The notes under the pieces were generated by a model. The model was given only the letters and a program-made list of their open reading frames with translations, had not been told where the DNA came from and did no database searches. Source: Nostoc sp. UHCC 0302 (GTDB taxonomy: Bacteria > Cyanobacteriota > Cyanobacteriia > Cyanobacteriales > Nostocaceae). Taken from it: a DNA stretch of 64,000 nt. The position numbers were made by a program, and so were the translations under genes. Position 1 is the stretch's first letter, and each line of letters starts with the position of its first letter. Below, one piece after another: positions 25,764-51,782 of this stretch. The DNA is taken from positions 7,728,001-7,792,000 of the forward strand of contig NZ_CP151099.1 in NCBI RefSeq assembly GCF_038096175.1, read 5' to 3'.

Positions 25764-27095
25764 ATGAAAACGACACTAAATTTGTCACGTTTTTATAAAG
25801 CTTGTAATCCAAGCTACACGTTAAACATAAGTAACGTGTTAGATCGGCAGTACTACATAGATTTTGCTGACGTACGCGGTTGCAAGATTGTGGAAGAATT
25901 GCAACGTACAATTAGCCGCATTTCTCCGGATGAGCCAACCTGCCAGCTATTTACAGGTCACATTGGTTGTGGTAAATCAACAGAGTTGCAACGCCTCAAG
26001 GCAGAACTAGAATTGGCTGGATTTCATGTGGTTTATTTTGAGTCCAGTCAAGACTTAGACATGGCAGATATTGATGTCAGCGACATTTTGTTGAGTGTAG
26101 CCCGGCAAGTAAGCATCAGTTTAGAAGCTATTGGCATCAAACTCAAACCTAGTTACTTTACCAATTTGTTTAAAGAAGTAGGCGATTTTTTGCAAACTCC
26201 TATAGAGCTTTCTGGACAAGCAGAGTTGTCTTTGGGTATTGCCAAAATTACTGCCAAAACTAAAGATAGCGCTCAGATGCGTAATCAACTGAGACAATAT
26301 CTGGAACCACGTACTAATAGTATTTTGCAAGCAATTAATGAAGAGATATTAGAAAAAGCTGTTGAACAGCTAAAGCTGAGGGGTCAAAAAGGACTGGTTG
26401 TGATTGTAGATAACTTAGATCGAGTGGATATGCGTCCTGTTGCCTCCGGGCGATCGCAACCAGAATATCTCTTCATCGACCGAGGCGAACAGTTACGCCG
26501 ACTCAAATGCCACCTAGTTTACACAATCCCCTTAGCTTTAATTTTCTCGAACGAATACGAGACACTAAAAAATCGTCTAGGGGGAGGCATTGCCCCTAAA
26601 GTACTACCAATGGTGCTGGTGCGGCAAAGAGATGGTAGCGATTACGAACCGGGAATTTCACTACTACGCCAGTTAGTCCTAGCAAGAGCTTTTCCTGAAG
26701 TTTCTTGGAATGAAAGACTATCGCTAGTTACAGAGTTATTCGATCACGCCGAAACCTTAGATCGTATATGCCGCGTTAGTGGTGGCCATATTCGTAATCT
26801 ATTAGGTTTGCTCTATAGCTGCCTGCAACGACAAGATCCTCCTTTTTCGAGAAACTGCTTGGAAGCCGTAATTAAGGACTACCGCGATGATCTCTTATTG
26901 GCTATTGATGAATACCAATGGGAATTGTTGTTTGAAGTAGTGCAGCAACAGAGAGTTAAAGGCGAGTCTGACTATCAGAGTTTACTGCGAAGTATGTACC
27001 TGTTTGAATACCGTGATCCTATAGGACGTTGGTTTGGGATCAGCCCAGCATTATCAGAAACAGAAAAAGTTCTCGCTTGGCAGCAAAAAAAGTAG
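25764..27095 (+). CDS. P-loop ATPase, first gene of the STAND/WD40 module
   Basis: 443 aa. Walker A is GHIGCGKST at 65-73 and Walker B LVVIVDNLDR at 211-220. A sensor-like YTIPLAL strand follows, then SGGHIRNLLGLL and a C-terminal winged-helix-like tail (SMYLFEYRDPIGRWFG). The fold is AAA/STAND-like, but I cannot assign a named family. The same motif order occurs in the 48707-49999 protein (GHRGCGKSS, VLVIIDDLDK, IIYTIPIAV, SGGVLRELIR, LYILEYRSEETWYD), so the two are paralogues. The next gene, 230 bp downstream, is its likely partner. It is probably a cytoplasmic ATP-dependent switch; its output is unknown. Confidence 0.85.
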   Translation: MKTTLNLSRFYKACNPSYTLNISNVLDRQYYIDFADVRGCKIVEELQRTISRISPDEPTCQLFTGHIGCGKSTELQRLKAELELAGFHVVYFESSQDLDMADIDVSDILLSVARQVSISLEAIGIKLKPSYFTNLFKEVGDFLQTPIELSGQAELSLGIAKITAKTKDSAQMRNQLRQYLEPRTNSILQAINEEILEKAVEQLKLRGQKGLVVIVDNLDRVDMRPVASGRSQPEYLFIDRGEQLRRLKCHLVYTIPLALIFSNEYETLKNRLGGGIAPKVLPMVLVRQRDGSDYEPGISLLRQLVLARAFPEVSWNERLSLVTELFDHAETLDRICRVSGGHIRNLLGLLYSCLQRQDPPFSRNCLEAVIKDYRDDLLLAIDEYQWELLFEVVQQQRVKGESDYQSLLRSMYLFEYRDPIGRWFGISPALSETEKVLAWQQKK

Positions 27096-27325
27096 AAATC
27101 TGAGAGTTTCAAAAGTAAAAATAAAAAATTCAAAAAATCTTTAATTTTAAATTTCTGATAATTAGGAATTTTGAATTAGAGTGGAAACGGCTAGAGAGTA
27201 TCTTTAGTCAAAATAGTTATATCCATAAGGTATGAGCCATGAGAAATAAGATTTTAAAAAGCTCATAATTTCCTTGTGATTTTTGGTGTGATGTTTTTCT
27301 TTCCTTTCAATCTCAATTTTTACTT

Positions 27326-30300
27326 ATGACAATCTGGCAACTTACAGGAGAGATCGCCACCGAAAATCAGCATGCTCTGCAAAGGCTGATTCGAGCGATC
27401 GCACTTTCGCAAGGTCAATTTTCCCTAATTCTAGTTCGGTGTAATTATGGGCAATTACGTGAGCAAATGTTAGAAAATATTCGCTCAACTACCAAAGATA
27501 TTAATTTAAAAGGAATTGTTCTTGATCCATCAACTAAAACTTTACATAGCACAATAATCTCAGAATTATTTTTAGATAATCCTGTTGTCATCACAGATTC
27601 TTTGCCATCAGCTGTAATGGTTTTGGGGCTAGAGTCAATTATTCATATTGAAGACTTACTTACTACCATCAACCAAGCGCGAGATATATATGCCACCACT
27701 TTTCGGTTTCCACTGGTCTTATGGCTACAAGATGAAGTGGCTTCATTGCTTTCTCGATTAGCACCCGATTTTAAAAGTTGGGCTGCTACGACTATTAAAT
27801 TTGAAATGGCAAAAGTAGATTTAATTACTTTGATCCGTCAAGAGGTAGAATCTATTTTTACTAAAGTTTTAGATGTAGGCGCAGAAAAATTTTTATCTAA
27901 TGCCTCTCTAGAATTAGATCCAAAATCCCAACATCGTCACGAAATAGAATCAGCCCGTAATGATTTACTGCGCCTATATGCTGTCAAATTAGATCCAGGG
28001 TTAGAAGCTAGTTTAGAAGTTGTATTAGGGCGAGATAAATATGCAAATGATCAAATTAATGGTGCTTTAGCTCATTATCAAAGAAGCCTAGCATTGTGGC
28101 AGCAGAACACAAGAAGAGTAGAGTGGGAACGTAGGAGAATGGGAGAGTGGGAGGCAGAGAAAGTAGAAGAAATAAGTGAACAATTACTCTTGTCTCTTCC
28201 TCCTTTTGTTCCCTCCTCTTCTTTACTTTGGCAAGCTATTGTATTATTCCACCTGGGACTGTGTTATCGCCGAATGGCAGACTTACATCAGAGTGGTAAC
28301 AATAGTTATTGGCAGCCGGCTCTGTCGTGGTTTAAGCAATGCTTGGAGGTATTAGAGGAGGCACAAAGAGAAGATTTAGTTGCCAAATTTATTTTGCCTG
28401 TTTGTGAAATTCTCCAACGTTTACAAGCTTGGAAAGAGTTAAAAGAATTAGCTCAAAAGTCATTACAGCTACATAAAATTTATGGAACTCGAACACAAGT
28501 TGCTCAAGATTATGGATTTTTAGGATATGTTGCCGCTTCTGAGTCAAATTGGATTCAAGCTCATGAATTAGCGAATACGGCGCTTTCTATTTCAGAAATA
28601 GCAACAGAAGTTTCTCTGCGAGACGCTTTGCGAACACGGCAACAGGAAAGTTGGTATTTATTATTATTGGCACGTACCCAGAGGCATTTAGGTGAGTGGG
28701 AAGAAGCTATTAATAACCTAGAGTGGGCGAGAATAGTTTGTGAGCTACAACATGAACCATCGCTCTACTTAGAAATTTTAGAGGAGTTGCGATCGCTTTA
28801 CTTTGTTGAGCGTCATGACTATATAGAAGCCTTTAACCTTAAGCAAGAGAAAATTCAAATAGAACATCAGTATGGCTTTCGTGCCTTCATCGGGGCAAGT
28901 CAATTGCAACCACAGCGTTCTAGAATTAACCCAGTCTTAGATTCACAAAAAACACCTTTTATTACTGAGGAAACTGCTCAAGAAATATCTGCTTCTGGAC
29001 GACGCCAAGATGTCAATCGCTTGATTGAAAGAATTACCCGTGCTGACTACAAACTTACAGTTATTCATGGTTCATCAGGCGTTGGGAAAAGTTCTGTTCT
29101 CAAAGCTGGTTTAGTCCCAGCTTTGAAAACCAAAGTAATTGGGGAACGTATTCCTATACCCATTGTTTTATCTGTTTACACTGATTGGGTTGGAGCTTTG
29201 GGAAATAGTGTTAATCAAGCACTAGCACACGCGGAAATATCTATCTCTACAGAAATTACACCTACTGTAATAAGTGAAAATCTCCGCTTATTAACCGAAC
29301 GTAATCATATAATAGTTATTATTTTTGATCAGTTTGAAGAATTTTTCTTTATAAGTAAATCTCCCGCCAATAAAATTAAATTTTATAACTTTTTTACTGA
29401 ATGTTTAAATATACCCTTTGTTAAAATAATTTTATCATTAAGGGAAGATTATTTACATTATTTATTAGAGTTCGAACGCTTAAATAGAGAAAATAATAAT
29501 AAAGTATATGATTTAGGCGTAATTAATAAAAATGTTCTCGATAAGGATATTCGCTATTACTTAGGAAAATTCTCCAGTCAAGATGCAAGAAGTGTAATTC
29601 GGAGTCTTACTCAACGTTCTCATTATGAACTCAGTAAGGAATTAATTAATAAACTAGTACAGGATTTGGCAGGAGAACTAGATGAAGTACATCCGATTGA
29701 ATTACAAATAGTCGGCGCTCAGCTACAAGCAGAAAACATTACCACATTGGAACAATATAAGCTTTGTGGTGGCTCGGAAAAACTTGTAGAACGCTGGCTT
29801 GAAGAAGTTATCAAAGACTGCGGGCAAGAAAATGAAGATTTAAGCTGGAAATTATTATTTGCGTTAACTGATGAAAAGGGTACACGACCGCTAAAAACGA
29901 AAACTGATTTAGTGGCTGCACTAGAAACTCATAACGATGATGCAATATCTGATTTTGACCCAGCTTGGGAATTGATTTTAGAAATTTTGGTTGGTTCAGG
30001 GTTAGTGTTACAAGTGCGGGAAGAATTAGGCGATCGCTACCAGTTGGTTCACGATTATTTAGTAGAACCAATTCGCCAAAAAAACAACTATGGCATGGTT
30101 GCTGAATTAGAAAAAGTCAGAATTGAAAAAAATAAAGCCGAAATAGCCCAAAAACTTAGTCAAGAACATCTTAATTTAGTGTTGCGACGACGGTTGCGAG
30201 AAGCACGTTTAGCGGGCGCATTATTGGCAGTTATGGGCGGGACAATAGCAGGGTTATGGTGGCAAGCTGATTTACAAAAAAGGGCTGCATTGCGCCAAAC

Positions 30301-32398
30301 CATCCGAGCTGAACGCAGCGAAACTAACTTTAAAATTAGTGCGATCACTGGGGCTAGTGAAGCTTTGTTTGCTTCCAATAAAGAATTTGATGCCCTTTTA
30401 GAAAGTTTACGGGCTTGGAGAAAACTTAAACAGACAGACAAAGTTCAACCACAAACCCGAATGCGAGTTGTCACAGCCCTGCAACAAGCTATTTATGGAG
30501 TTACCGAAGTAAATCGCCTGGAAGGACACACTGATATTGTTTGGGGTGTAACTTTCAGCCCTGATGGTAAGTTGTTAGCATCTGGTAGCCGAGATCAGAC
30601 AGTGAAACTTTGGCGTCCAAATGGCACTTTACTCCAAACCCTCAAAGGTCATACCGATGCCATTACCAGCGTGAATTTCAGTCCAGATGGCCAAAGCTTA
30701 GCTGCTGCCAGTCTTGATAAAACTGTGCAAATCTGGCACAAAAACCCAATAACAGGCGAATTTGACCCAAAACCATCTAAAACTCTGTTAGCAGGAGATT
30801 GGGTTTATAGTGTGAGTTTCAGTCCTGATGGAGAATTAGTAGCTACTGGCAGTAAGGATAAAACCATCAAAATTTGGCGCAACGACGGTAGCTTAGTCAA
30901 AATACTCAAGGGACATCAAGGATGGGTTAACTGGGTAAGCTTCAGTCCTGACAGCCAATACATCGCCTCAGCAAGCGAAGACAAGACAGTGAAAATCTGG
31001 CGACGAGACGGTAGCTTGGTTAAAACTTTGCAGGGGCATGAGCAGGGTGTGACTATGGTTACTTTCAGTCCTGATGGCAAGCTATTAGCTTCAACAGGTC
31101 AAGATAAAACAGTGAAACTGTGGCAACGAGAGCCTGATAGTAAAGATAATTGGGACTTTCATATTTATAAAACTTTACAACACCATACCAGCACAATTTG
31201 GAGTCTAAGTTTCAGTTCTGATGGTCAAAAGTTAGCTTCCGCCAGCGATGACAATACCATTGACATCTGGAGTAACACTGGCACATTACTCAAAACCTTA
31301 AAAGGACATAATGATGCTGTGACTAGTGTGGCTTTTAGTCCAGATAACAAATTGCTTGCTTCAGGAAGTTATGACAAAAGTGTCAAACTTTGGCGACTAG
31401 ATACACCAACTTTACCCGTTCTTAAAGGGCATCAGGATCGAGTTTTGAGCGTTGCTTGGAGTCCTGATGGTCAAATGTTAGCTTCTGGTAGTCGTGATCG
31501 CACGGTGAAGCTTTGGCAAAGAGAAACTAACCACGGCGAGGTTACAACTCGACTCTACAAAACTCTGGTCGGCCATACAGATAGAGTTCCTAGTGTCAGT
31601 TTTGATCCAAAAGGTGAAATGCTGGTCTCAGGAAGTTATGACAAAACTCTCAAACTTTGGCGGCGTGATGGCACTTTACTCAAAACTCTTCAAGGGCATA
31701 GCGATAGTGTAATGAGTGTGAGTTTCAGCCCAGATGGCCAGTTATTAGCATCAGCAAGTAAAGACAAGACAGTAAAACTTTGGAATCGTCAAGGCAAGTT
31801 ACTCAAAACCTTAATTGGCCATCAGGGTTGGGTGAATAGCGTGAATTTCAGCCCTGACGGTCAGGTTTTAGCTTCAGCTAGCGATGACAAAACTCTTAAA
31901 CTTTGGCGGCGGGATGGTACTTTAATCAAAACTTTTACGCCCCATGACAGCTGGGTGTTAGGTGTAAGCTTTAGTCCTACTGATAACTTGCTAGCTTCTG
32001 CTAGCTGGGACAATACAGTGAGGTTGTGGCAGCGGGACGGTAAGTTGTTCAAAACATTGTTAAAGGGATACAGCGATAGCGTTAATGCTGTTACTTTCAG
32101 TCCCAATGGTGAACTCCTCGCCGCTGCCAATTGGGACAGTACAGTTAAACTTTGGAGCCGTGATGGTGAATTGATTAAAATTCTTAACGGACATCGCGCC
32201 CCAGTTTTAAGTGTCAGCTTTAGTCCAGATGGTCAAACACTAGCATCAGCTAGTGATGACAACACGATTATTCTCTGGAATTTGCATCTCGATAACTTGC
32301 TCTTTCGTAGTTGTAACTGGGTGGGTGATTACCTTAAGTACAACCGCAATGTCGAAGAGCGCGATCGCTCTATTTGTGATGACATACCCTCCAAGTGA
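27326..32398 (+). CDS. STAND NTPase with degenerate N-terminal domain, TPR-like region, TM helix and 14 WD40 repeats
   Basis: 1690 aa, in order: (1) residues 1-200, an NTPase-like domain without a P-loop, ending in FPLVLWLQDEVASLLSRLAPDFKSW, shared with the 49989-51782 protein; (2) about 230-520, TPR-like helices, interrupted near 260-300 by a charged repeat-like insert; (3) an nSTAND1-type NTPase with Walker A GSSGVGKSS near 582-590 and Walker B IIVIIFDQFEEF near 665-676; (4) one hydrophobic helix near 962-981 (AGALLAVMGGTIAGLWWQA); (5) fourteen WD40 repeats from about 1063 to 1660, enough for two seven-bladed propellers. STAND proteins sense a trigger through their repeats and switch on by NTP-driven assembly. 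No catalytic effector domain is visible. Confidence 0.92.
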   Translation: MTIWQLTGEIATENQHALQRLIRAIALSQGQFSLILVRCNYGQLREQMLENIRSTTKDINLKGIVLDPSTKTLHSTIISELFLDNPVVITDSLPSAVMVLGLESIIHIEDLLTTINQARDIYATTFRFPLVLWLQDEVASLLSRLAPDFKSWAATTIKFEMAKVDLITLIRQEVESIFTKVLDVGAEKFLSNASLELDPKSQHRHEIESARNDLLRLYAVKLDPGLEASLEVVLGRDKYANDQINGALAHYQRSLALWQQNTRRVEWERRRMGEWEAEKVEEISEQLLLSLPPFVPSSSLLWQAIVLFHLGLCYRRMADLHQSGNNSYWQPALSWFKQCLEVLEEAQREDLVAKFILPVCEILQRLQAWKELKELAQKSLQLHKIYGTRTQVAQDYGFLGYVAASESNWIQAHELANTALSISEIATEVSLRDALRTRQQESWYLLLLARTQRHLGEWEEAINNLEWARIVCELQHEPSLYLEILEELRSLYFVERHDYIEAFNLKQEKIQIEHQYGFRAFIGASQLQPQRSRINPVLDSQKTPFITEETAQEISASGRRQDVNRLIERITRADYKLTVIHGSSGVGKSSVLKAGLVPALKTKVIGERIPIPIVLSVYTDWVGALGNSVNQALAHAEISISTEITPTVISENLRLLTERNHIIVIIFDQFEEFFFISKSPANKIKFYNFFTECLNIPFVKIILSLREDYLHYLLEFERLNRENNNKVYDLGVINKNVLDKDIRYYLGKFSSQDARSVIRSLTQRSHYELSKELINKLVQDLAGELDEVHPIELQIVGAQLQAENITTLEQYKLCGGSEKLVERWLEEVIKDCGQENEDLSWKLLFALTDEKGTRPLKTKTDLVAALETHNDDAISDFDPAWELILEILVGSGLVLQVREELGDRYQLVHDYLVEPIRQKNNYGMVAELEKVRIEKNKAEIAQKLSQEHLNLVLRRRLREARLAGALLAVMGGTIAGLWWQADLQKRAALRQTIRAERSETNFKISAITGASEALFASNKEFDALLESLRAWRKLKQTDKVQPQTRMRVVTALQQAIYGVTEVNRLEGHTDIVWGVTFSPDGKLLASGSRDQTVKLWRPNGTLLQTLKGHTDAITSVNFSPDGQSLAAASLDKTVQIWHKNPITGEFDPKPSKTLLAGDWVYSVSFSPDGELVATGSKDKTIKIWRNDGSLVKILKGHQGWVNWVSFSPDSQYIASASEDKTVKIWRRDGSLVKTLQGHEQGVTMVTFSPDGKLLASTGQDKTVKLWQREPDSKDNWDFHIYKTLQHHTSTIWSLSFSSDGQKLASASDDNTIDIWSNTGTLLKTLKGHNDAVTSVAFSPDNKLLASGSYDKSVKLWRLDTPTLPVLKGHQDRVLSVAWSPDGQMLASGSRDRTVKLWQRETNHGEVTTRLYKTLVGHTDRVPSVSFDPKGEMLVSGSYDKTLKLWRRDGTLLKTLQGHSDSVMSVSFSPDGQLLASASKDKTVKLWNRQGKLLKTLIGHQGWVNSVNFSPDGQVLASASDDKTLKLWRRDGTLIKTFTPHDSWVLGVSFSPTDNLLASASWDNTVRLWQRDGKLFKTLLKGYSDSVNAVTFSPNGELLAAANWDSTVKLWSRDGELIKILNGHRAPVLSVSFSPDGQTLASASDDNTIILWNLHLDNLLFRSCNWVGDYLKYNRNVEERDRSICDDIPSK

Positions 32399-32467
32399 AT
32401 CGCTGAAGCCTAAATGAACAAACGCCCTCAGAGTTTATGATCTCAAAACTCAAAAAAAGTTTTGAGC

Positions 32468-32818
32468 TTAAAAATCACAAGAGCGATCGCTAGTCAACAC
32501 CTCGTCGCTGTTTTCCTCAGTTGAGTCTTCTTGGAAATTCGCTAAAAAAGCTTGTATCCTCATGCGCTCAATATAAGGCCAGCCCCCCTCAGACTCAATA
32601 TCTTTGAGTAGTGAGTACAGTTGTCGGCGATTACTAGGCAAACTTTCTTGAAAAGCCCCATCCCGAATCTCTCGGTGTAACTTCTCTAACTGCCGTAGCA
32701 AACTCAAAATAGCTATAGTATCCCCCTGACAGCTTTTAGCTGCATCATGTACTACACTTGCGATCGCCTGGATTTGACAGGATAATTGCCCAGATTCAGA
32801 ACTTTTGTCGTTACTCAT
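32468..32818 (-). CDS. Conserved hypothetical small protein
   Basis: 116 aa from ATG 32818. It is helical and acidic: a first helix pair (IQAIASVVHDAAKSCQ, ILSLLRQLEKLHREIRDG), then RRQLYSLLKDIESEGGWPYI and RMRIQAFLANFQED, ending in an acidic tail. It resembles small cyanobacterial hypothetical proteins I have seen, but I cannot name the family. It is convergent with the WD40 gene (70 bp gap). No function assigned. Confidence 0.7.
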   Translation of the reverse strand: MSNDKSSESGQLSCQIQAIASVVHDAAKSCQGDTIAILSLLRQLEKLHREIRDGAFQESLPSNRRQLYSLLKDIESEGGWPYIERMRIQAFLANFQEDSTEENSDEVLTSDRSCDF

Positions 32819-34649: not shown

Positions 34650-34729
34650 AGCTTCTTGATTACTCCAACTGGCGCTAAGAACTAAAATTCTGGAAAGCAT
34701 CAGGCTCTACTACAACAGTTAACTGCTTT

Positions 34730-34749
34730 GCCCCCATTTTTTAGGGGGC
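34730..34749 (+). terminator. Hairpin after psbO
   Basis: GCCCCC stem paired with GGGGGC around an AT-rich loop, 80 bp after the psbO stop, followed by GAGTAGCTTTTTTAC. Likely intrinsic terminator. Confidence 0.6.
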
Positions 34750-41023: not shown

Positions 41024-41170
<147 letters not shown>

Positions 41171-43421: not shown

Positions 43422-43784
43422 GTGTTTGTCCTCAGCGGTTACGAGTATCTTCTAGGCTTCTTACTCATCTGTAGCCTAGTACCTGCCTTAGCGCTCTCAG
43501 CGTCCAAGCTCTTACGACCCAGTAGTTACAGCCCAGAACGGCGCACTACATACGAATCTGGTATGGAACCCATTGGGGGAGCCTGGATTCAGTTCAACAT
43601 CCGCTACTATATGTTTGCCCTGGTCTTCGTCGTTTTTGATGTGGAGACTGTGTTTTTGTATCCTTGGGCAGTAGCGTTCCACCGTTTGGGGCTATTGGCA
43701 TTTATTGAAGCACTAATCTTTATTGCAATTCTTGTAGTCGCCTTAGTGTACGCATGGCGTAAAGGAGCTTTGGAGTGGTCTTGA
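43422..43784 (+). CDS. ndhC: NAD(P)H-quinone oxidoreductase subunit 3 (NdhC)
   Basis: 120 aa from GTG 43422. Three TM helices, with the family loop [20 protein letters not shown] between TM1 and TM2 and the [13 protein letters not shown] segment of TM2. NdhC lies in the membrane arm of NDH-1 near the quinone entry site, used in respiration and cyclic electron flow. Its end overlaps ndhK by 10 bp. Confidence 0.97.
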
Positions 43785-44512: not shown

Positions 44513-45062
44513 AGAAGAATCTAAAGCAGTACCAGCAGACGAAGCAGAGTCTAAACCATTACCAGCAGCTCAAGAATCTCTAGTAGAAGCTGGTAAAATT
44601 TCCAAGTGGCTGACCGAAAATGGCTTTGATCATGAGTTTTCGGAACCAGACAAGAACGGGGTAGAGATTATTAAGGTTGAGCCTGATTTCTTGCTCCCCA
44701 CCGCTACAGCTTTGTATGCTTACGGGTTTAATTATCTTCAGTTTCAAGGTGGTGTTGACCTTGGGCCTGGGCAAGAATTGGTGAGCGTGTATCACTTAAT
44801 TAAAGTCGGTGATAATGGCGATCGCCCTGAAGAAGTGCGAGTTAAAGTGTTCTTACCACGGGAAAATCCGAGAGTGCCTTCTGTGTACTGGATTTGGAAA
44901 ACCGCAGATTGGCAAGAGCGCGAAGCTTACGATATGTTTGGCATTATCTACGAAGGACACCCGAATCTCAAGCGAATTTTGATGCCGGAAGATTGGGTGG
45001 GTTGGCCTTTGCGGAAGGATTACGTCTCGCCTGATTTCTATGAGTTGCAGGATGCTTATTAA
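44505..45062 (+). CDS. ndhJ: NAD(P)H-quinone oxidoreductase subunit J (NdhJ)
   Basis: 185 aa from GTG 44505. The complex I 30-kDa signature reads [17 protein letters not shown], then [14 protein letters not shown] and [15 protein letters not shown]. The first 35 residues are acidic and Ala-rich, a common cyanobacterial extension. Last gene of ndhCKJ; hairpins follow. Confidence 0.97.
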
Positions 45063-45123
45063 GTAGTGCTGAATAGAGACGCGATTCATCGCGTCTGTAC
45101 AATATAGTGTTTCGATAGTGATT

Positions 45124-45151
45124 AACCCCTTTCCGGTGGCGGAGAGGGGTT
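45124..45151 (+). terminator. Putative hairpin after ndhJ
   Basis: AACCCCT paired with AGGGGTT around a 14-nt loop, 60 bp after the ndhJ stop. A GACGCGATTCATCGCGTC palindrome of the dispersed family at about 45079-45096 lies between and may also stop transcription. Confidence 0.4.
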
Positions 45152-45484
45152 ATGTTTTCCATGTCTTGCGCAAAGGCGCAAAGAAGGACGCCAAAGAGTG
45201 TGGTTTTAAACAAGACAAAGGTTAATCAAAGCCTACAGAACCCCATGCTAGAAGCGAAAAAGGGATATTACACCTGTATTTCTGCAACAACCTTCTTGTT
45301 CTTTTGCGATCGCACTCAGCATCTCTATCGTCATTGGTGCGTAGGCGTAGCCCGTCGTAGACATCGCTGGACTAATTAAAATCCTAAAATCTGGCTAATT
45401 CCAACATCTAGTGCAGGTTAAAATTAGATATGCTCGTAAAAAATGTTGTATTTACAGCAGAGCTACTACAAAAATTAAAAGCTT
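45152..45484. other. Intergenic region with repeat fragments
   Basis: Contains a dispersed fragment near 45162-45197 (CTTGCGCAAAGGCGCAAAG). A 75-codon frame starting at 45152 overlaps it and is not supported. A 24-codon frame at 45430 runs into the antitoxin gene and is too short to call. Confidence 0.4.
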
Positions 45485-45832
45485 ATGACAGCCAGCAATA
45501 TTAGGCAACAAATTTTAGAGCATCTTAAAACATTACCTGGAGAACAGGTGAAAACTCTCCTGTTAACATGGCTGTCTGGTACATCCAATTCTTTAGAAGA
45601 TTTTGAGCGATTACTGACACATCAAACTACTCAAACGACGGAAGAATCATTTGAGTACGGAGAGATAGACACAGGATTAAATTTTCAACCTCTTACTGAA
45701 GCCCAAATGCTTCAGCAGAGTCAATCTGCTCTCGAAGCTTACCGTTCCAAAGGTTCAGGAATAGCCCATGATCACGTGCGTGAATGGGCTGAAAGTTTGG
45801 GAACAGATCGAGAACGTCCATGTCCTAGATAG
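45485..45832 (+). CDS. Putative antitoxin of a ParE/RelE-type pair
   Basis: 115 aa. The N-terminal helices (IRQQILEHLKTLPGEQVKTLL) lead to a polar middle and a C-terminus ending GIAHDHVREWAESLGTDRERPCP. This ending is like that of cyanobacterial antitoxins that precede RelE/ParE toxins. The stop overlaps the 5' end of the toxin frame by 13 nt, the usual coupled layout. The N-terminus is unlike the standard RHH or Phd antitoxins, so the family is uncertain. Its partner is broken (see 45820-46110). Confidence 0.7.
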   Translation: MTASNIRQQILEHLKTLPGEQVKTLLLTWLSGTSNSLEDFERLLTHQTTQTTEESFEYGEIDTGLNFQPLTEAQMLQQSQSALEAYRSKGSGIAHDHVREWAESLGTDRERPCPR

Positions 45833-46110
45833 TTTGGACTGAAACTGCAATTGACGACTTAAATCGTCATTACGATTTTGTAAAACTGAATAATCCTGAT
45901 GCAGCAGTACGTGCAGTACAAGCAATTGTTTCTTCAGGCGAAAGTCTAGAGCAGAATCCTCGTCGAGGTGCAATCGTAGATGAAATAGCAGGCTTACGAA
46001 AACTTTTGGTTTCTTTTGGTAAGTACGGCTTTATAATTCACTACGTTATTCTTGAGGATGATGTTGTTATTCTACGCATCTATCACGGGCGAGAGAATCG
46101 ACCTCGTTAG
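45820..46110 (+). pseudogene. ParE/RelE-type toxin, nonsense codon at position 3
   Basis: From ATG 45820 the frame reads ATG-TCC-TAG-ATA-GTT-TGG and then stays open for 93 codons. Translation after the TAG gives IVWTETAIDDLNRHYDFVKL and ends in IIHYVILEDDVVILRIYHGRENRPR, the ParE/RelE fold including the C-terminal catalytic-type RxYHGRENR. Restoring AAG at codon 3 would give MSKIVWTE, a normal start for this family. There is no other ATG, GTG or TTG near the start. It therefore looks inactivated by one substitution (see findings). Confidence 0.75.
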
Positions 46111-46265
46111 TATTAATTTTCATGTTGAAAAGATTAGGCTACCTACTCCCTCTCGACATCCTCAGCAATTACCGTAACCGCTTGCTCAACTCTTAAAGCA
46201 AACATTGGATAAAGGAGAATATGAAGCGATCACCATCAAACATCACAACCAAATCTGTAAAAAAA

Positions 46266-46829
46266 TTACTCTAATAACCACCCAAAAACAGACGCCACGC
46301 TCAGATTTAACTCATTAGCAAAAGATGGAACAGGAAGTTTTTGCTGTGGTTCATCAAATACTTCTGGTTGCTGCTTGGGAAGATAAACAAACACTGTTTG
46401 CTCATTTGGATCAATTAACCAACACATTTGAGTGCCAGAATTGAGGCAACACAAAATATTTTTGGTGACTTTTGTTTGACTTTGGTCAGGTGATAGAATC
46501 TCAATTGTCCAATCAGGAGCTATTAAAAAGGTATTAGCAACCTCGCCTTTTTCATCGCGGGGAATTCTCTCCCAAGTAAACACAGACACATCTGGAATTA
46601 TTGAGCGTCCATCAAATGTGCAACGTAACTCTGAAAATGCTCGTGCAATCTGTTGCGGTTTAAGAATTACATTGATAGTAGTAGAAAACTCGGTTTGAAT
46701 TGTGCTGTGCTTACCCTGCGGCATTGGTTTCTGGATGATTTGCCCATCAATATATTCGCTAGCAGGTTCTGTTTCTGGTAGCTTGAGAAACTCATCTAAA
46801 GTTATCGATTTAGATGGGGTTTGTAGCAT
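46266..46829 (-). CDS. Uma2-family (DUF820) putative endonuclease
   Basis: 187 aa. The Uma2/DUF820 core is visible: LDEFLKLPETEPASEYIDGQ, then SIIPDVSVFTW and APDWTIEILSPDQSQTKVTKNI, which supply the PD-(D/E)XK-like Asp and Glu, and WLIDPNEQTVFVYLP. These proteins are very abundant in cyanobacteria; DNase activity is suspected from the fold and the biological role is unknown. It stands alone with ATG 46829. The family often varies by duplication and transfer. Confidence 0.88.
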   Translation of the reverse strand: MLQTPSKSITLDEFLKLPETEPASEYIDGQIIQKPMPQGKHSTIQTEFSTTINVILKPQQIARAFSELRCTFDGRSIIPDVSVFTWERIPRDEKGEVANTFLIAPDWTIEILSPDQSQTKVTKNILCCLNSGTQMCWLIDPNEQTVFVYLPKQQPEVFDEPQQKLPVPSFANELNLSVASVFGWLLE

Positions 46830-46937
46830 TAGGGCTTTCTTGTAAAAAAGAGTTTAATTAGCTTTATATTAATTTTAATGGTGCGTTGTCACAAAGGTCA
46901 ACGCACCCTTATCTAAAGAAGCAGCGAGTCCAAACAA

Positions 46938-47306
46938 TCACTTCACAGATGTCACTGTTTGGTTGACTACTGGACGTGCTTTTTTACGGTCTGATCTGCG
47001 CGTTCCACCAGCCATCTCATACTCATCACTACTTTTGCCATAGTGAGATGCAACATTTAACAGCATTTGTTCAGAATAAGTATTTAACTCGCGTTCTGCT
47101 TCTATTAATGCATTGTGTGTCTTATCTACTATTGTTTGTGCTTGATTATAAGCGGCTAGCTTTTCTCGTAACTCAATTACTTTAGTGTTGTAAGTAGCAA
47201 TTGAAAACCCATTACTAAAGTTTAACTCAGGGTTAATTGTCTGCATTCCTTCAATCCGTCGTTCAGCTTTGGTAAGTGCGATGGAGTTTCGTTTCCGTTG
47301 CGTCAT
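46938..47306 (-). CDS. Conserved hypothetical cyanobacterial protein
   Basis: 122 aa, helical and basic. A central coiled-coil-like region (VIELREKLAAYNQAQTIVDK, NALIEAERELNTYSEQML) is followed by ASHYGKSSDEYEMAGGTRRS and a Lys/Arg-rich tail. I remember the YGKxSDEYEMAGGTR ending from Nostocales hypothetical proteins. No function known. ATG 47306. Runs in the same direction as the Uma2 gene, 108 bp upstream of it. Confidence 0.75.
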   Translation of the reverse strand: MTQRKRNSIALTKAERRIEGMQTINPELNFSNGFSIATYNTKVIELREKLAAYNQAQTIVDKTHNALIEAERELNTYSEQMLLNVASHYGKSSDEYEMAGGTRRSDRKKARPVVNQTVTSVK

Positions 47307-47487
47307 ATAGTTTTCCTATTTGGATTAATTTATAAATAACCATGATCTTATACACTGAGTTATTTATATATCATCAAAATATGCAATAAGCAGATGCACC
47401 AGCCACAGTGAAGTTACAGAATTTTAAAAGCATTGGATGGCATTAGCCAACTAATAGATGCGGGTATATTTGCTTAAATTTGTTGAG

Positions 47488-47690
47488 AAAAGCTAGTTTT
47501 GAAGTCGCAAAAGCTAGTTTTGAAGTCGCAAAAGCTGGTTTTGAAGTCGCAAAAGCTGGTTTTGAAGTCGCAAAAGCTAGTTTTGAAGTCGCAAAAGCTG
47601 GTTTTGAAGTCGCAAAAGCTAGTTTTGAAGTCGCAAAAGCTGGTTTTGAAGTCGCAAAAGCTGGTTTTGAAGTCGCAAAAGCTAGTTTGA
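47488..47690. repeat. 21-bp minisatellite, nine full copies plus a partial
   Basis: Unit AAAAGCTRGTTTTGAAGTCGC, identical in every copy apart from one A/G site. The order of that site is A A G G A G A G G A. Being 21 bp, the array leaves frames open on both strands (FEVAKAS-type and TSFCDFK-type); these are not taken as genes because no folded flank or ribosome binding site accompanies them. Confidence 0.92.
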
Positions 47691-47737
47691 TGAAAGTTGT
47701 TCAAATAATTCCATAACCTTAATTAGCTCAACAGAAC

Positions 47738-47767
47738 AACCCCACGGATAAATTTATCCGTGGGGTT
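47738..47767. terminator. 30-nt perfect palindrome
   Basis: AACCCCACGGATAAA followed directly by its exact complement. It can form a strong hairpin in RNA or a cruciform. No T run follows on either side (TTACGAC to the right, GTTCTGTT on the other strand), so a terminator role is only one option. Confidence 0.5.
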
Positions 47768-48146
47768 ACGACTATTACCGCAAGGCGGAATTAAAAGAAT
47801 GCTTTTTAGCGCCGTGTGCAACTTTCTTTCAAACCTAACCCCCAGCCCCTTCCCTGCAAGGGAAGGGGAGCAAGAATCAAAACCTCTCGACTTTTCGGGG
47901 CTACGGTAAATTACCCCCCTTAATCCCCCCTTATAAAGGTGGGAAACAAAAAATCTAGTTCTCTCCCCTTGTAAAGTAGAGGGTTAGGGAGGGGTAAAAC
48001 CAACGCTTAAACCCAGATAAGTGAACTGTTTCCGACTTGTGTGTACACGGTAGCATTTCCAAGGGGGGAAACAAGAAATCCAGTTCCCTCCCCTTTGCAA
48101 GGGCAGGGTTAGGGTGGGGTAAAACAGTACGGCGTAAATAAAGCAA
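47768..48146. repeat. Block of dispersed CCCCTTCCC-type repeats
   Basis: Several copies of a common Nostoc repeat: CCCCTTCCCTGCAAGGGAAG near 47850, CTCTCCCCTTGTAAAG near 47961 and TCCCTCCCCTTTGCAAGGG near 48084, each followed by a GGGTTAGG(G)GGGGTAAAAC-like tail. A related copy occurs at about 53024-53108 near pstB. No gene seen. Confidence 0.7.
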
Positions 48147-48359
48147 CTATTTCAAATTATTCAAAAGCCTGTCTTCTAAGCTTTTTGACTTTTGACCCTT
48201 CGACTGCGCTTCAGGGTCAAGGCTGAGCGAACTTGTGCTTAGCGTAGCCGAAGTAGCCGAAGCCTTGACTTTTGACTTCCGGCTTACAGTAATAAGTATA
48301 TTTGCAAAAGTGAGATAAATACCTAGTAAACCAGTAGTAACAACAGCTTCCCATTGCAT
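48147..48359 (-). CDS. Possible small membrane protein with repeat-derived tail
   Basis: 70 codons from ATG 48359. The first 30 residues (MQWEAVVTTGLLGIYLTFAN, then ILITVSRKSK) look like a real single-span membrane protein of the small photosynthetic type, though I cannot match it to a known subunit. From about residue 31 the coding sequence is a dispersed repeat (GACTTTTGACTTCCGG-like and CTTCGGCTACTTCGGCTAC), so the tail may be an accident. Low confidence. Confidence 0.35.
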   Translation of the reverse strand: MQWEAVVTTGLLGIYLTFANILITVSRKSKVKASATSATLSTSSLSLDPEAQSKGQKSKSLEDRLLNNLK

Positions 48360-48706
48360 CGGCTAGAGGGGGATGAGACGAAGCACACTAAAAATTTGTT
48401 TTTATAACTGAAAACTTTATTTTATTTATTTGTTAAGTAACTTTCACTATTTCAAATGTATAATCCATCATCTATTGCTATTTAGCAAATGTATAATTTG
48501 TTATTCATTATTATTTATTTATCACTCCTATTACTTATTTTCTCGTTAGCACTCTCGGAGATAGAGCTTACCTTTTAAAAAGATAAGTTAGTAACCACTT
48601 AGTAGCCATTTATTAACATAGCTATTAAGGTTGCACTTGCCTTAATTTTTGCTTCAAAAATGATGAGCCATTATATGAATAGTTGGCACGTTTACGGCAC
48701 TATCTT
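48360..48706. other. AT-rich leader before the second ATPase/TPR pair
   Basis: About 350 bp of AT-rich sequence with TATTTA-type runs. No ORF. It presumably holds the promoter of the pair at 48707-51782. Confidence 0.4.
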
Positions 48707-49999
48707 ATGACTCAAGAATTATTAAACTCCTTTCAAGAAGCATACAGCAATCTCGAGCTGTTTCCATTAATGGAACAAAACGAAATGGAAAGATTCCGGG
48801 TGCAATATGGTGATGATTTAATCGCAGACCTGAGACAATTAGTTGAAGACAGTCCCAATGGAGATGGCAAAATTGTCTTTACAGGACATCGAGGATGTGG
48901 TAAGTCCAGTTTGTTAGCTGAGTTCAGCAGACAAATCCAAGATAAGTATTTTGTAGTGTTATTCTCTATTGCAGACAAAATTGAAATGTCGGCAGTTAAC
49001 CATATTAATATTCTGTTTGCGATCGCAGTAAATTTAATGACTGAGGCAGAAGCACGTAAAGTTGAAATTCCTCAATCTACTAAAGAAGCTCTTTATAAAT
49101 GGTTTGCTACCCGTACTCGCACTGAAGAATTAAATTTTCAAGCAGAAGCTTCAATAGGTTTTGACTTGTTGAAGTTGATTAGCTCTAAATTAAAAGCTGA
49201 CGCTACAGTTCGCGATGAAATTAAGCAAGAATTTGAACGTAAAATATCAGATTTAGTTGCCAGAATTAACGAAATTGCTGCTCTTATTCAAGCAGCTACC
49301 AAACAAGACGTATTGGTAATTATTGATGATTTAGATAAACTCGACTTAGGAAGAGTCAATGAAATATATAAAGATAATATTAAAGCTCTTTGCCAGCCTA
49401 ATTTTCGCATCATTTACACTATCCCGATCGCAGTGCTTCGCGAAACATTTATCAGCACAATAATTGCTACAGAGACTAACGACCAAGTTGTAGCCATGCC
49501 TGTCTTAAAAATTTTTGAGAAAGGTAAAAACAGGCTACCTTACGCAGAACCTCGTCCGGAAACAACTAAAATTCTTGGTGAAGTTTTACGGAAACGGATT
49601 CCTAGTGAATTAATCGCAGATGACACTGCTGAAAAAATTGTTATTTACAGTGGTGGTGTATTGCGAGAGTTAATTCGGATTTCTAAAGAATGTTGCCGGA
49701 TTTGCTTACGAATGATCCGGCGAAATCCATCTGCTAAGGTTTTGATTGATGATAAAATATTAGCCCAAGCAATCAACAAAATACGCAATGACTTTTCTAT
49801 ATGTTTAGGAAAAGTTGATATAGGTATTTTGCAAAGTATTTATCAACAATTCATGCCGAATGACCCCAAACAAGCAGAGTTTTTAGATTTACTACATGGA
49901 TTGTACATCTTAGAATATCGCAGTGAAGAAACTTGGTACGATGTTCACCCGATTATCATAGAAAGCCTGAAAAGTCAGGGAGTCGTCAATGTGGCATGA
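48707..49999 (+). CDS. P-loop ATPase, first gene of the TPR module
   Basis: 430 aa from ATG 48707 (MTQELLNSF); a TTG 24 nt upstream is less likely. Walker A GHRGCGKSS at 60-68, Walker B VLVIIDDLDK at 202-211, then IIYTIPIAVLRET and SGGVLRELIRISKECC, ending in LYILEYRSEETWYDVHPIII. The motif order and C-terminal LEYR...W motif match the 25764-27095 protein. It overlaps the TPR gene by 11 bp, implying translational coupling and a stoichiometric complex. The family is AAA/STAND-like; the function is not known. Confidence 0.85.
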   Translation: MTQELLNSFQEAYSNLELFPLMEQNEMERFRVQYGDDLIADLRQLVEDSPNGDGKIVFTGHRGCGKSSLLAEFSRQIQDKYFVVLFSIADKIEMSAVNHINILFAIAVNLMTEAEARKVEIPQSTKEALYKWFATRTRTEELNFQAEASIGFDLLKLISSKLKADATVRDEIKQEFERKISDLVARINEIAALIQAATKQDVLVIIDDLDKLDLGRVNEIYKDNIKALCQPNFRIIYTIPIAVLRETFISTIIATETNDQVVAMPVLKIFEKGKNRLPYAEPRPETTKILGEVLRKRIPSELIADDTAEKIVIYSGGVLRELIRISKECCRICLRMIRRNPSAKVLIDDKILAQAINKIRNDFSICLGKVDIGILQSIYQQFMPNDPKQAEFLDLLHGLYILEYRSEETWYDVHPIIIESLKSQGVVNVA

Positions 50000-51782
50000 A
50001 GAATCTTTAGATGATGAAGACTTGTTAGATAATGATGAGGATAATCTAGATGCTTATGATGATTTAATTGTTTCTATTGAACCTCGAAAGCAGGGCTTGA
50101 ATTTACTGATTGCAGTTTGTGATGATGCTAACTTTCAGGATGAGATTATTAGCCAGTATGAAACTGAACTACAACCAGTTTTTCGTACCTATCGGGTGAC
50201 TTTACCACGCAAGGAACCGAGCCTGAAAGCTGCACTGAATCAACTGGTACAACAAGAAGAATATCTCCAGCAACGTAACCCAGCAGTCATTACTGTCACA
50301 GGTACTGAGCAGTTTTATTTTCTCAGACTGGGGGAGGAACAATCGGAACAGGAGAAGTTTTTTGGTTACTTACAGTGGACAAGAGAAGGATTGCGCGATT
50401 TTCCTTTTGCGATCGTCCTTTGGGTGACTAACCAAATTTTAGTCAACTTGATTAAAAAAGCTCCTGATTTTTGGAGTTGGCGCAATGGTGTTTTTAAGTT
50501 TGTCTCTAAAAAGACAAATGCGATCGCTGGGAAGGAACTAGAATCTATTCGCTTTGTTTTTCGAGACACGGAATTAGCCAGCACAGATACTGATGAAGAT
50601 AACCCTTTTTTCTTACCCATCCAAGATTTACAAAGGTTAATCGACAAGATAGAACAGGAACGGGGAACTAAAGACCCTAGCTTGGCTACCTTATACTCAA
50701 GGTTGGGCGATATTTACCACAGCAGATTAGATCGGGGAGAGTCTCAAAATTACAAACAAGAACAGGAACTAGCAATTAGGTATTGGTATAAGGCGATCGA
50801 GCTACAAAATGAATTAGGTTTGCAGATAGATTTGGCTGCTAACCTGAATAATTTAGCAGGGTTATACCGCGCAACAGGACGCTACAGCGAAGCAGAACCC
50901 CTGTATCAACAAGCCTTGGAACTCAGGAAACGTCTTTTAGGAGACAATCATCCTTCTCTCGCTACTAGCCTCAATAACCTAGCGGGACTCTACAAATCTA
51001 CTGGACATTACAAGAAAGCAGAACTTCTATATCAAGAAGCTTTGGAACTAAGAAAACGTCTTTTGGGAGAAAATCATCCCGATGTTGCCGCTAGTTTAAA
51101 TAACTTAGCACTGCTGTACGATGAACAAGGACGCTATGAAGAAGCAGAACCGCTTTATTTGCGATCGCTAGAACTTGCAAAAAGTCTGCTTGGCGAAAAT
51201 CATCCTTCTTTCGCTTTCATGCTAAATAATTTAGCACTGCTTTATTATCATCAAGGACGCTACAGTGAAGCTGAACCGTTGTCGCAACAAGCGGTAGAGT
51301 TAGATAAGCGATTTTTAGGCGAAGATAATCCTGATGTTGCTACAGACCTTCACAATTTGGGATTGATCTACCGCGCTCAAGCACGCTACTCTGAAGCTGA
51401 ATCATTGTTTCTGCAATCTTTAGAACTTAAGCAGCGTCTATTACCAAAGGCGCATCCCCTATTGGCAGATACTATTTACGCTCTTGGTTATATGTACAGA
51501 GAGCAGGAGCGCTACAATGAGGCTGAACCTTTGTGTGTACAAGCTTTAGAATTTGATAAACATTTATTGGGAGAAAACCATCCCAATGTTGCTGAAAGTC
51601 TGAATAATTTGGCAGAAATCTATCGTGTAACTGGACGCTACAACGAAGCAAAACCCCTTTACGAGGAAGCTTTAGATGTTTGTCAACGAGTTTGGGGCAC
51701 AAGTCATCCTCGTACTATCGCTGTTCATCAAAATCTGGCAAAACTTGATGCAGCAATGCAAAATAATTGTAGCAATCAGTAG
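49989..51782 (+). CDS. Adaptor protein with degenerate NTPase-like domain and seven TPRs
   Basis: 597 aa. After an acidic start (DDEDLLDNDEDNLD), residues about 30-190 form a domain without a P-loop that ends FPFAIVLWVTNQ, then KKAPDFWSWRNGVFKF. It aligns by eye with the N-terminus of the 1690-aa WD40 protein (FPLVLWLQDE, LAPDFKSW). From about 280 to 575 there are seven 42-residue kinesin-light-chain-type TPRs (LNNLAGLY...GRY.EAEPLY..ALEL...LLGENHP). TPR arrays bind partner proteins or peptides. The ATG 49989 overlaps the upstream ATPase gene. Confidence 0.88.
   Translation: MWHEESLDDEDLLDNDEDNLDAYDDLIVSIEPRKQGLNLLIAVCDDANFQDEIISQYETELQPVFRTYRVTLPRKEPSLKAALNQLVQQEEYLQQRNPAVITVTGTEQFYFLRLGEEQSEQEKFFGYLQWTREGLRDFPFAIVLWVTNQILVNLIKKAPDFWSWRNGVFKFVSKKTNAIAGKELESIRFVFRDTELASTDTDEDNPFFLPIQDLQRLIDKIEQERGTKDPSLATLYSRLGDIYHSRLDRGESQNYKQEQELAIRYWYKAIELQNELGLQIDLAANLNNLAGLYRATGRYSEAEPLYQQALELRKRLLGDNHPSLATSLNNLAGLYKSTGHYKKAELLYQEALELRKRLLGENHPDVAASLNNLALLYDEQGRYEEAEPLYLRSLELAKSLLGENHPSFAFMLNNLALLYYHQGRYSEAEPLSQQAVELDKRFLGEDNPDVATDLHNLGLIYRAQARYSEAESLFLQSLELKQRLLPKAHPLLADTIYALGYMYREQERYNEAEPLCVQALEFDKHLLGENHPNVAESLNNLAEIYRVTGRYNEAKPLYEEALDVCQRVWGTSHPRTIAVHQNLAKLDAAMQNNCSNQ

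What the first reader, a model, noticed from the sequence alone, without database searches (positions are those of the whole stretch)
25764..51782. Same two-gene ATPase/adaptor module present twice, with different sensor repeats
Seen: 25764-27095 and 48707-49999 encode P-loop ATPases with the same motif order (GH-GCGKS; VDNLD/IDDLD; YTIP; SGG..R; LEYR...W). Each is followed by a protein sharing an N-terminal FP-VLW...APDF-SW domain but ending in either STAND+TM+14 WD40 or seven TPRs. One pair is spaced 230 bp, the other overlaps by 11 bp. Known: STAND/TPR/WD40 proteins of multicellular bacteria are candidates for regulated conflict or cell-suicide signalling. Inference: gene 1 is a shared ATPase core and gene 2 the sensor adaptor, with swappable repeats. 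No effector enzyme is visible, so the output may be the membrane helix in the WD40 copy.
Basis: partly seen in the sequence, partly recalled or inferred. Interest (0 to 1): 0.85.

Follow-up and report, generated by a model that had tools for sequence, protein, structure and literature searches.

The report
Paired ATPase and sensor-adaptor immune-like module
Two copies of a widespread two-gene switch, an ATP-binding protein plus a partner that joins an inactive ATPase-like domain to sensing repeats, sit in this cyanobacterium's genome, and some relatives of the switch are fused to parts of predicted suicide and defence systems.

Summary
ORFs 25764-27095 and 48707-49999 encode homologous STAND/Cdc6-like ATPases (25% identity over 403 aa, E 1e-23). 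Each is followed by a protein with a shared N-terminal domain, then TPR-nSTAND1-14xWD40 or 7xTPR. The pairing recurs: 61 of 64 full-length ATPases in 21 genomes, and 71 of 80 best-matching loci of a second collection (7 of 9 misses lie at contig ends). The N-domain has no Pfam match; AlphaFold predicts an AAA+-like core without a P-loop (0 of 54 rows). I read the pair as active plus inactive STAND. ATPase and N-domain co-diverge within one genome (r 0.96). All three tandem-ATPase loci that I met (two events) have tandem N-domains. Four near-identical cores on presumed plasmids carry divergent propellers in five of six pairs. TIR is fused to the second ATPase in two relatives; two others fill the effector slot of MoxR-vWA systems. 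By sequence it is not WRAP, nSTAND2 or iSTAND, though it works like them. Repeat class changed once on the ATPase tree, so 'swappable' holds mainly for propellers. No defence function is shown; both window copies lie among housekeeping genes, and the TPR copy, conserved in Nostoc, may be regulatory.

The parts
25764..27095 (+). ATPase A (443 aa), STAND/Cdc6-like AAA+; Walker A GHIGCGKS at 25956-25979
   Evidence: fold inferred by homology with the model
27326..32398 (+). Partner A (1690 aa): P-loop-less N-domain, TPR-like region, nSTAND1, possible TM, 14 WD40 repeats
27326..27925 (+). N-domain of partner A (about aa 1-200)
   Evidence: boundary inferred from standalone versions of about 160 aa
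28046..28945 (+). TPR-like middle region of partner A (about aa 240-540)
   Evidence: TPR_12 E 4.8e-12
28997..30067 (+). nSTAND1 NTPase domain of partner A (aa 558-914)
   Evidence: PF20703 E 1.2e-31
30209..30262 (+). Hydrophobic segment, possible transmembrane helix (aa 962-979); weak in this copy
   Evidence: placed by eye
30506..32290 (+). 14 WD40 repeats; best solved match is the WRAP propeller 2ymu
   Evidence: borders approximate
48707..49999 (+). ATPase B (430 aa), same family; Walker A GHRGCGKS at 48884-48907
   Evidence: AlphaFold model (pLDDT 90.5)
49989..51782 (+). Partner B (597 aa): P-loop-less N-domain plus 7 TPRs; overlaps ATPase B by 11 bp
50037..50528 (+). [quoted passage not shown]
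   Evidence: AlphaFold model (pLDDT 81.2)
50832..51728 (+). TPR array of partner B (about aa 282-580)
   Evidence: borders approximate

Best explanation
Each locus is a split STAND switch. Gene 1 is a bare STAND/Cdc6-type ATPase (nucleotide-binding core, helical lid, winged helix) with no sensor of its own. Gene 2 begins with a degenerate AAA+ domain that has lost its P-loop and, I infer, docks onto the ATPase 1:1 in a mixed ring or dimer, so that the repeats behind it control ATP-dependent assembly. In the TPR form the repeats would be the sensor. In the WD40 form a second STAND (nSTAND1) and a beta-propeller sit behind the dock, at whose place canonical tripartite STAND proteins carry an effector; here that place holds a dock for an ATPase acting in trans. 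Ligand binding would release the resting state, the ATPase would assemble, and the assembly would trigger an output. In two relatives an output domain is visible, a TIR fused to a second ATPase; in two others the ATPase itself fills the effector slot of a MoxR-vWA conflict system. The most likely role is a regulated counter-invader or cell-suicide switch. Shown: homology, near-obligate pairing seen from the ATPase side, co-divergence, matched duplication, TIR and MoxR-vWA fusions, propeller divergence on near-identical cores. Predicted: the folds. Inferred: complex formation, ligand sensing, the output of the window copies.
For: Pairing: 61 of 64 full-length ATPases (matches of 1100 bases or more) in 21 genomes, gaps 3 to 1361 bp, median 100 (from the tables); 71 of 80 loci, 7 of the 9 misses at contig ends. 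Walker A: 52 of 52 ATPase rows, 0 of 54 N-domain rows. N-domain model resembles AAA+ domains (TnsC 7ufi Z 11.9, 164 aligned, rmsd 4.2; Drosophila ORC chain C Z 10.9, 159 aligned, rmsd 4.3; Foldseek best E 1.8e-4). ATPase model resembles archaeal 2qen (Z 17.4, 304 aligned, rmsd 4.3), TnsC, ORC/Cdc6, CED-4 and plant NLRs. Co-divergence in one genome: Mantel r 0.96, p 1e-4 over 10 pairs and 0.94, p 0.0013 over 7; without copy B 0.97, p 4e-4 over 9 and 0.92, p 0.005 over 6; over 4 of the WD40 class 0.80, p 0.13. Over 45 loci r 0.89, p 5e-4. Tandem ATPases with tandem N-domains in L154, L199, L236, from two events. TIR_2 on the second ATPase: L199 E 1.2e-31, L236 E 1.5e-33. Effector slot of an EAD8-iSTAND/AAA/VWA_CoxE system (L239) and of a VMAP/MoxR/SAV_2336 system on a plasmid (L234). 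Four cores on presumed plasmids: ATPase 96-97%, N 88-94%, propeller 39-51% in 5 of 6 pairs and 84% in one. Ten further ATPase loci in the genome outside the window: seven intact, one cut short, two decayed. A conjugative-plasmid copy lies between recombinase genes.
Against: No phage challenge, toxicity or interaction data exist here. The window copies have no effector domain, and their neighbours are housekeeping genes (ftsQ, psbO, sigma factor, ycf48, ABC transporter) plus one Uma2 nuclease gene, not a defence island. N-domain and ATPase profiles do not match each other (E 0.078), so a common origin is not shown. Position 165 of the N-domain, which I take as the usual arginine-finger site, is Arg in only 31 of 54 rows. 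PADLOC hits of the ATPases are weak and cover the P-loop region; those of the partners lie in the repeats. The TPR-type ortholog is single-copy here and 89-92% identical in 19 of the 80 loci, unlike a fast-evolving defence gene. The co-divergence is not significant within four WD40-class pairs. No match of ATPase A in 50,697 phage records.
Confidence: 0.58

Rival explanations
1. A regulatory signalling switch of ordinary physiology (development, nutrient or stress response), not defence. The TPR copy in particular would be a conserved regulator of Nostoc and near relatives.
For: Copy B is single in this genome and 89-92% identical in 19 of the 80 loci (Nostoc, Desmonostoc, Komarekiella, a Roholtiella-like strain). 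In 7 of those 19 an ndh or pst neighbour of the window recurs within the stretch held. Neighbours in the window are housekeeping genes. STAND proteins also include transcription regulators such as MalT (recalled).
Against: The TPR class also occurs scattered in an Anaerolineae genome, Thiomargarita and an acidobacterial plasmid. The WD40 class is multicopy, on presumed or known plasmids, decaying in places, and its ATPases are fused to TIR or MoxR-vWA parts in relatives.
Confidence: 0.28
2. A member of the WRAP two-gene operon (TIR-STAND plus STAND-WD40) described from Nostoc punctiforme.
For: Same logic and same class of WD40 array: 2ymu (WRAP) is the best solved match of the propeller, E 1.8e-254; TIR occurs in both.
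Against: In Nostoc sp. CHAB 5824, named as holding a WRAP homologue, the gene most like the 2ymu blades lies in L232 behind a TIR-bearing ORF; neither shows a match to our ATPase, N-domain, middle region or nSTAND at E up to 10, while our pair lies elsewhere on the same contig, L233.
Confidence: 0.05
3. A transposition or plasmid-maintenance regulator of the TnsC type.
For: Both models have TnsC among the best structural matches; some copies lie near transposase or recombinase genes.
Against: No transposase or recombinase gene was seen to travel with the pair in the loci mapped; neighbours differ. TnsC is one of many AAA+ matches.
Confidence: 0.03

Closest known systems
nSTAND2 two-gene counter-invader operon (Kaur et al. 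2021, PMC8195603; section 15 and passages read)
   Same: Two adjacent genes; one active STAND, one STAND with eroded nucleotide site fused to variable modules; mobile
   Different: No place matched by PF20702 coincides with our ATPases or N-domains in 21 genomes; one match is an extra domain fused ahead of an ATPase in L154. Variable modules there are most often GT4 or HEPN; here TPR or nSTAND1-WD40
WRAP operon of Nostoc punctiforme (Dunin-Horkawicz et al. 2014, not read; known here through passages of PMC9218822)
   Same: Coupled TIR-STAND and STAND-WD40 genes; recently amplified propellers; proposed innate immunity
   Different: Core domains show no match by sequence in the strain tested; TIR is N-terminal there, C-terminal on a second ATPase in two of our relatives
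iSTAND MoxR-vWA ternary systems (Kaur et al. 2020, PMC7159879, passages)
   Same: An inactive STAND as regulatory or sensing component; a relative of our ATPase sits in the effector position of one such system (L239)
   Different: The window pair has no MoxR or vWA gene among the neighbours checked; the N-domain does not match iSTAND
Origin recognition complex / Cdc6
   Same: Mixed assemblies of active and inactive AAA+ subunits (recalled); among the best fold matches of both models
   Different: No replication context; sensor-type repeats on the inactive partner

Membership tests
STAND / Cdc6-like AAA+ ATPase (gene 1) | Walker A and Walker B | tested here: met
   Walker A in 52 of 52 rows; D207 invariant, L209 and D210 nearly invariant in the Walker B strand
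STAND / Cdc6-like AAA+ ATPase (gene 1) | nucleotide-binding core, helical lid and winged helix | tested here: met
   Predicted model only: AlphaFold pLDDT 90.5; 2qen Z 17.4, 304 aligned, rmsd 4.3; CED-4, NLR and ORC also listed
STAND / Cdc6-like AAA+ ATPase (gene 1) | ATP hydrolysis or nucleotide-driven oligomerisation | not testable with these tools
   needs protein
Inactive AAA+/STAND domain (N-domain) | AAA+ alpha/beta/alpha core | tested here: met
   Predicted model only, pLDDT 81.2; Foldseek best E 1.8e-4; TnsC Z 11.9
Inactive AAA+/STAND domain (N-domain) | loss of P-loop | tested here: met
   0 of 54 rows match GxxxxGK[ST]
iSTAND (PF19995) | match to the iSTAND profile | tested here: not met
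   No iSTAND place (E up to 1e-4) coincides with an N-domain place in the 21 genomes shared; no iSTAND hit for either window partner's N-terminus at E 0.1; profile comparison E 0.13 and 0.33
iSTAND MoxR-vWA ternary system | adjacent MoxR and vWA genes | tested here: not met
   10 neighbouring ORFs scanned with Pfam, none MoxR or vWA; the other ORFs by inspection only
nSTAND2 two-gene system | match to PF20702 | tested here: not met
   0 places on ATPases or N-domains in 21 genomes at E up to 1
nSTAND2 two-gene system | GT4 or HEPN module on the inactive partner (most common, not universal) | tested here: inconclusive
   not listed for the 13 partners scanned (2, of which one list was cut at 25; 10; 1); most partners were not scanned with Pfam
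nSTAND2 two-gene system | conserved arginine finger in both proteins | tested here: inconclusive
   N-domain R132 invariant in 54 of 54 but not at the usual site; R165 in 31 of 54
WRAP operon | TIR-STAND and STAND-WD40 cores homologous to those of L232 | tested here: not met
   no ATPase, N-domain, middle-region or nSTAND match at E up to 10
WRAP operon | WD40 array of WRAP class | tested here: met
   2ymu best, E 1.8e-254
Anti-phage defence system | protection in a phage assay | not testable with these tools
   no experiment

The most novel reading that the evidence does not exclude
An undescribed family of split STAND switches: the catalytic ATPase and a P-loop-less AAA+ partner domain are a co-evolving heteromeric core, with standalone partner-domain proteins acting as free subunits or decoys. 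The core is recruited repeatedly into other conflict systems (TIR fusions, MoxR-vWA effector slots) and carries rapidly exchanged propellers, a bacterial analogue of a repertoire of NLR receptors sharing one apoptosome core.
Probability: 0.4. Interest if true: 0.78.

Novelty: new variant of a known kind. Interest (0 to 1): 0.62.

Why it matters
It adds a common, unnamed module to the STAND-based conflict systems of multicellular bacteria: 101 of 194 genomes sampled from the window's class hold the ATPase at E up to 1e-60, yet the partner domain had no Pfam match. It makes testable whether a dead AAA+ domain gates a live one to turn repeat sensing into an output such as cell death, and whether propeller exchange on a fixed core builds a receptor repertoire within one genome.

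Tried and rejected
Generic P-loop similarity only: rejected. N-domain as iSTAND: not supported. nSTAND2 membership: not supported. WRAP operon membership: not supported. Common origin of N-domain and ATPase by profile comparison: no significant match, so it rests on fold alone. An internal promoter or terminator around the 230-bp gap of copy A: 2 promoter-like sites against 1.9 expected, both on the other strand, and 0 terminators; whether the two genes share a transcript is open. Solved-structure search by sequence: none for ATPase A, two chance-level hits for ATPase B. PADLOC: PDC-S20 (2.7e-6), mad8 and VakA (3.4e-7) on the ATPases cover the P-loop region; HEAT-ARM_XIII (9e-50) and TPR (5.4e-20) on the partners lie in the repeats. 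Phage records: none for ATPase A. Paper PMC10811720: one passage seen, a CHAT protein, not ours. Free swapping of repeat class: one change only on the tree; this is a quick tree with long branches among divergent rows. I assigned the labels: 8 rows with unclear partners were left out, as were the NACHT, AAA_16 and MoxR-vWA rows, and the partners of L132, L154, L199 and L236, which have the nSTAND domain but no WD40 match, were counted in the STAND-WD40 class. The rough odds of 4e-4 for tandem ATPase with tandem N-domain (two events among 72 loci) assume independent loci. Literature: eight answered searches showed no paper describing this pair in their listings; most subscription journals are not held, and Dunin-Horkawicz 2014 and Leipe 2004 were not read. 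Papers opened: passages only of PMC7159879, PMC12839542, PMC10907252, PMC9218822 and PMC10811720, and passages plus section 15 of PMC8195603. The 'Npun2340/2341 family' of STAND NTPases named in PMC8195603 might be related; I could not test it.
Full report
OBSERVATION. The four ORFs lie at the stated coordinates. ATPase A (443 aa) and ATPase B (430 aa) align over 403 columns at 25% identity, E 1e-23, including Walker A, Walker B (VDNLD/IDDLD), YTIP, SGGxxR and the C-terminal EYR...W; copy A reads FEYR. The partners' N-termini align over 169 columns at 25%, E 8e-6. Pfam finds 14 WD40 stretches in partner A and 7 TPR_10 stretches in partner B, nSTAND1 in partner A (PF20703, E 1.2e-31) and a TPR-like region ahead of it. 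The gap in pair A is 230 bp and pair B overlaps by 11 bp. The membrane helix claimed for partner A is weak in this copy; a simple hydropathy cut-off of 1.9 finds one in 11 of the 16 nSTAND-bearing partners.

SURROUNDINGS. The window neighbours are housekeeping genes: FtsQ-type POTRA, PsbO, a sigma factor, YCF48 and phosphate-type ABC transporter genes by Pfam, plus one Uma2 nuclease gene and three ORFs without a Pfam match (10 ORFs scanned); FtsZ and NDH genes by inspection. This is not a defence island.

RECURRENCE IN THE GENOME. The genome (9.59 Mb, 9 contigs) holds ten further ATPase loci outside the window. Seven ATPases are intact: six have a full-length partner of the nSTAND-WD40 type (L024, L025, L026, L027, L029, L030) and one a truncated partner of 153 aa (L028). 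One is divergent and cut short, separated from a TPR partner by two ORFs that look like transposase pieces (L025:5040-9025). Two are decayed (L031, L032). Five of the seven intact ones lie on the 283-383 kb contigs C2, C3 and C4, which I presume to be plasmids; a 93% identical ATPase lies on a known plasmid of Nostoc sp. ATCC 53789.

RECURRENCE ELSEWHERE. In 21 genomes (the own one and 20 relatives; 18 with a match), 64 ATPase matches of 1100 bases or more were found, and 61 have an N-domain match downstream on the same strand at 3 to 1361 bp, median 100. Two of the long gaps span the second ATPase of L154 and the insertion in L025. Of the three without, one is the MoxR-vWA case below and two are unexplained (L157, L158). 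Seen from the other side, 27 of 91 N-domain matches have no ATPase: 17 standalone ORFs of 138-212 aa in 15 genomes, three long ORFs (1743-1887 aa) whose contig ends I did not check, three weak matches in ORFs of 663-707 aa, two second rows of loci already counted and two fragments. In a second collection, the best 80 of 527 confirmed loci were kept; most are close to copy B or of the WD40 class, and the genomes may overlap the first set. 71 of 80 are paired; 7 of the 9 others end within 635 bp of the ATPase, and the remaining two are a truncated ATPase (L113) and L122. The set includes Anaerolineae/Chloroflexi, Thiomargarita and a planctomycete, and an acidobacterial plasmid was found later. 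A spread of 59 genomes of the phylum gave 16 with a match at E up to 1e-30: 15 of 21 in the window's class and 1 of 38 outside it. A class scan gave 101 of 194 at E up to 1e-60 (row list cut).

STRUCTURE. The ATPase model (52 rows, pLDDT 90.5) matches archaeal Walker-type ATPase 2qen (Z 17.4, 304 aligned, rmsd 4.3; a STAND by recall), TnsC, Cdc6/ORC, CED-4 and plant NLRs. Its secondary structure ends in what I read as a winged helix. The N-domain model (54 rows, pLDDT 81.2) has five strands alternating with helices and matches AAA+ domains: TnsC Z 11.9 (164 aligned, rmsd 4.2), ORC chain C Z 10.9, NSF about Z 10. Walker A is present in 52 of 52 ATPase rows and absent in 54 of 54 N-domain rows. 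R132 and D160 are invariant in 54 of 54 rows; position 165, which by secondary structure I take as the usual AAA+ arginine-finger site, is Arg in 31 of 54. The N-domain has no Pfam match and no convincing NCBIfam match. Sequence profiles do not link it to the ATPase or to iSTAND.

EVIDENCE THAT THE TWO PROTEINS WORK AS A UNIT. Within one genome, distances among ATPases and among N-domains correlate (Mantel r 0.96, p 1e-4 for 10 pairs; r 0.94, p 0.0013 for 7). Without the outlying copy B r is 0.97 (9 pairs, p 4e-4) and 0.92 (6 pairs, p 0.005); for four WD40-class pairs it is 0.80 and not significant (p 0.13). So pairs have stayed together through their splits; finer co-adaptation is not shown. 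Over 45 loci r is 0.89. Three loci that I met have two adjacent ATPases (L154, L199, L236); in all three the partner has two tandem N-domains. No partner ORF has two N-domain matches; in L134 the partner is split over two ORFs. On the ATPase tree L199 and L236 are kin and L154 is separate, so two events. The complex itself is not shown.

LINKS TO CONFLICT SYSTEMS. In L199 and in a Calothrix sp. NIES-4101 plasmid (L236) the second ATPase carries a C-terminal TIR domain (TIR_2 E 1.2e-31 and 1.5e-33). In L239 an ATPase that falls inside the WD40-class clade is fused behind a linker in a locus with EAD8-trypsin, EAD8-iSTAND (PF19995, E 5.5e-26), a MoxR-like AAA gene and a VWA_CoxE gene. In Nostoc sp. 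C057 plasmid p057_J a divergent ATPase is fused to a SAV_2336 protein next to a MoxR gene and a VMAP-C protein. I read both as the effector position of MoxR-vWA ternary systems as described in PMC7159879 and PMC8195603 (passages and section 15). The two ATPases lie apart on the tree, so recruitment probably happened twice, though the second is a long branch. Other partners carry NNH1-NACHT (L118) or TPR plus AAA_16 (L092). A conjugative Acaryochloris plasmid carries the pair between two recombinase genes, with HicAB and NACHT genes nearby. Plasmid records with a match: 6 of 72,556 for one ATPase and 5 for ATPase B.

SENSORS. Four copies (L026, L027, L029, L030; L028 left out for its truncated partner) share 96-97% ATPase and 88-94% N-domain identity, yet their propeller regions share 39-51% in five of six pairs and 84% in the sixth; the linker shows the same pattern, 27-51% and 88%. 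The propeller segments include a shared C-terminal extension and repeats align ambiguously, so these figures are approximate. By contrast the repeat class (TPR or STAND-WD40) changes once on the ATPase tree (labels and left-out rows are told under Tried and rejected). In the own genome all 8 matches of this nSTAND1 at E up to 1e-15, itself included, belong to these loci.

COMPARISON. The nearest described kinds are the nSTAND2 two-gene operon, the WRAP operon and the iSTAND ternary systems. Logic is shared with all three; sequence membership was tested and not met. The WRAP test used Nostoc sp. CHAB 5824, named in PMC9218822 as holding a WRAP homologue: the gene most like the 2ymu blades (up to 87% in single matches) stands in L232 behind a TIR-bearing ORF, the TIR recognised by eye, and our pair stands elsewhere on the same contig (L233).

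RESULTS AGAINST. There is no functional test. Both window copies lie among housekeeping genes. The TPR copy is 89-92% identical in 19 of 80 loci, and an ndh or pst neighbour recurs in 7 of those 19. PADLOC and phage records give no support. The N-domain fold is predicted, not solved.

VERDICT. A real, recurrent, multicopy two-gene module; a new variant of the known STAND-based conflict systems of multicellular bacteria. A defence or suicide role is likely for the WD40 class and open for the TPR copy.

Noticed in passing
L143:6525-7028 and homologues in L144-L153: Standalone N-domain protein of about 160 aa, away from the ATPases: 17 ORFs in 15 of 21 genomes. In 5 of 11 stretches read it has a homologue of a GHL10 glycosyl hydrolase gene nearby and in 7 of 11 a recurring protein that looks secreted. 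Possible free subunit or decoy.
   Followed up: partly
L025:5040-9025: A divergent ATPase separated from its TPR partner by two ORFs that look like transposase pieces, its C-terminus cut short: an insertion inside the module.
   Followed up: partly
L031, L032 (G000:C1 about 3.266 and 2.772 Mb): Two decaying copies of the module in the same genome.
   Followed up: no
L154:2-2608: ATPase fused behind an nSTAND2-like domain and TPRs, next to a second ATPase.
   Followed up: partly
L199:3736-5826 and L236:8363-10456, after the TIR: A tail that looks by eye like an effector-associated domain; Pfam gave no match.
   Followed up: no
L234:7294-7788: A 164-aa protein rich in hydrophobic stretches right after the vWA-ATPase fusion, possibly a membrane effector.
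   Followed up: no
L027:2063-4978, L026:3956-5185, L029:12754-13905: Pentapeptide-repeat genes, one with an NNH3 domain, next to three copies of the module.
   Followed up: no
L239:3111-5348: An Mrr-like endonuclease domain fused to NACHT inside the MoxR-vWA island.
   Followed up: no
window 46266-46829: A Uma2 putative nuclease gene near pair B.
   Followed up: no
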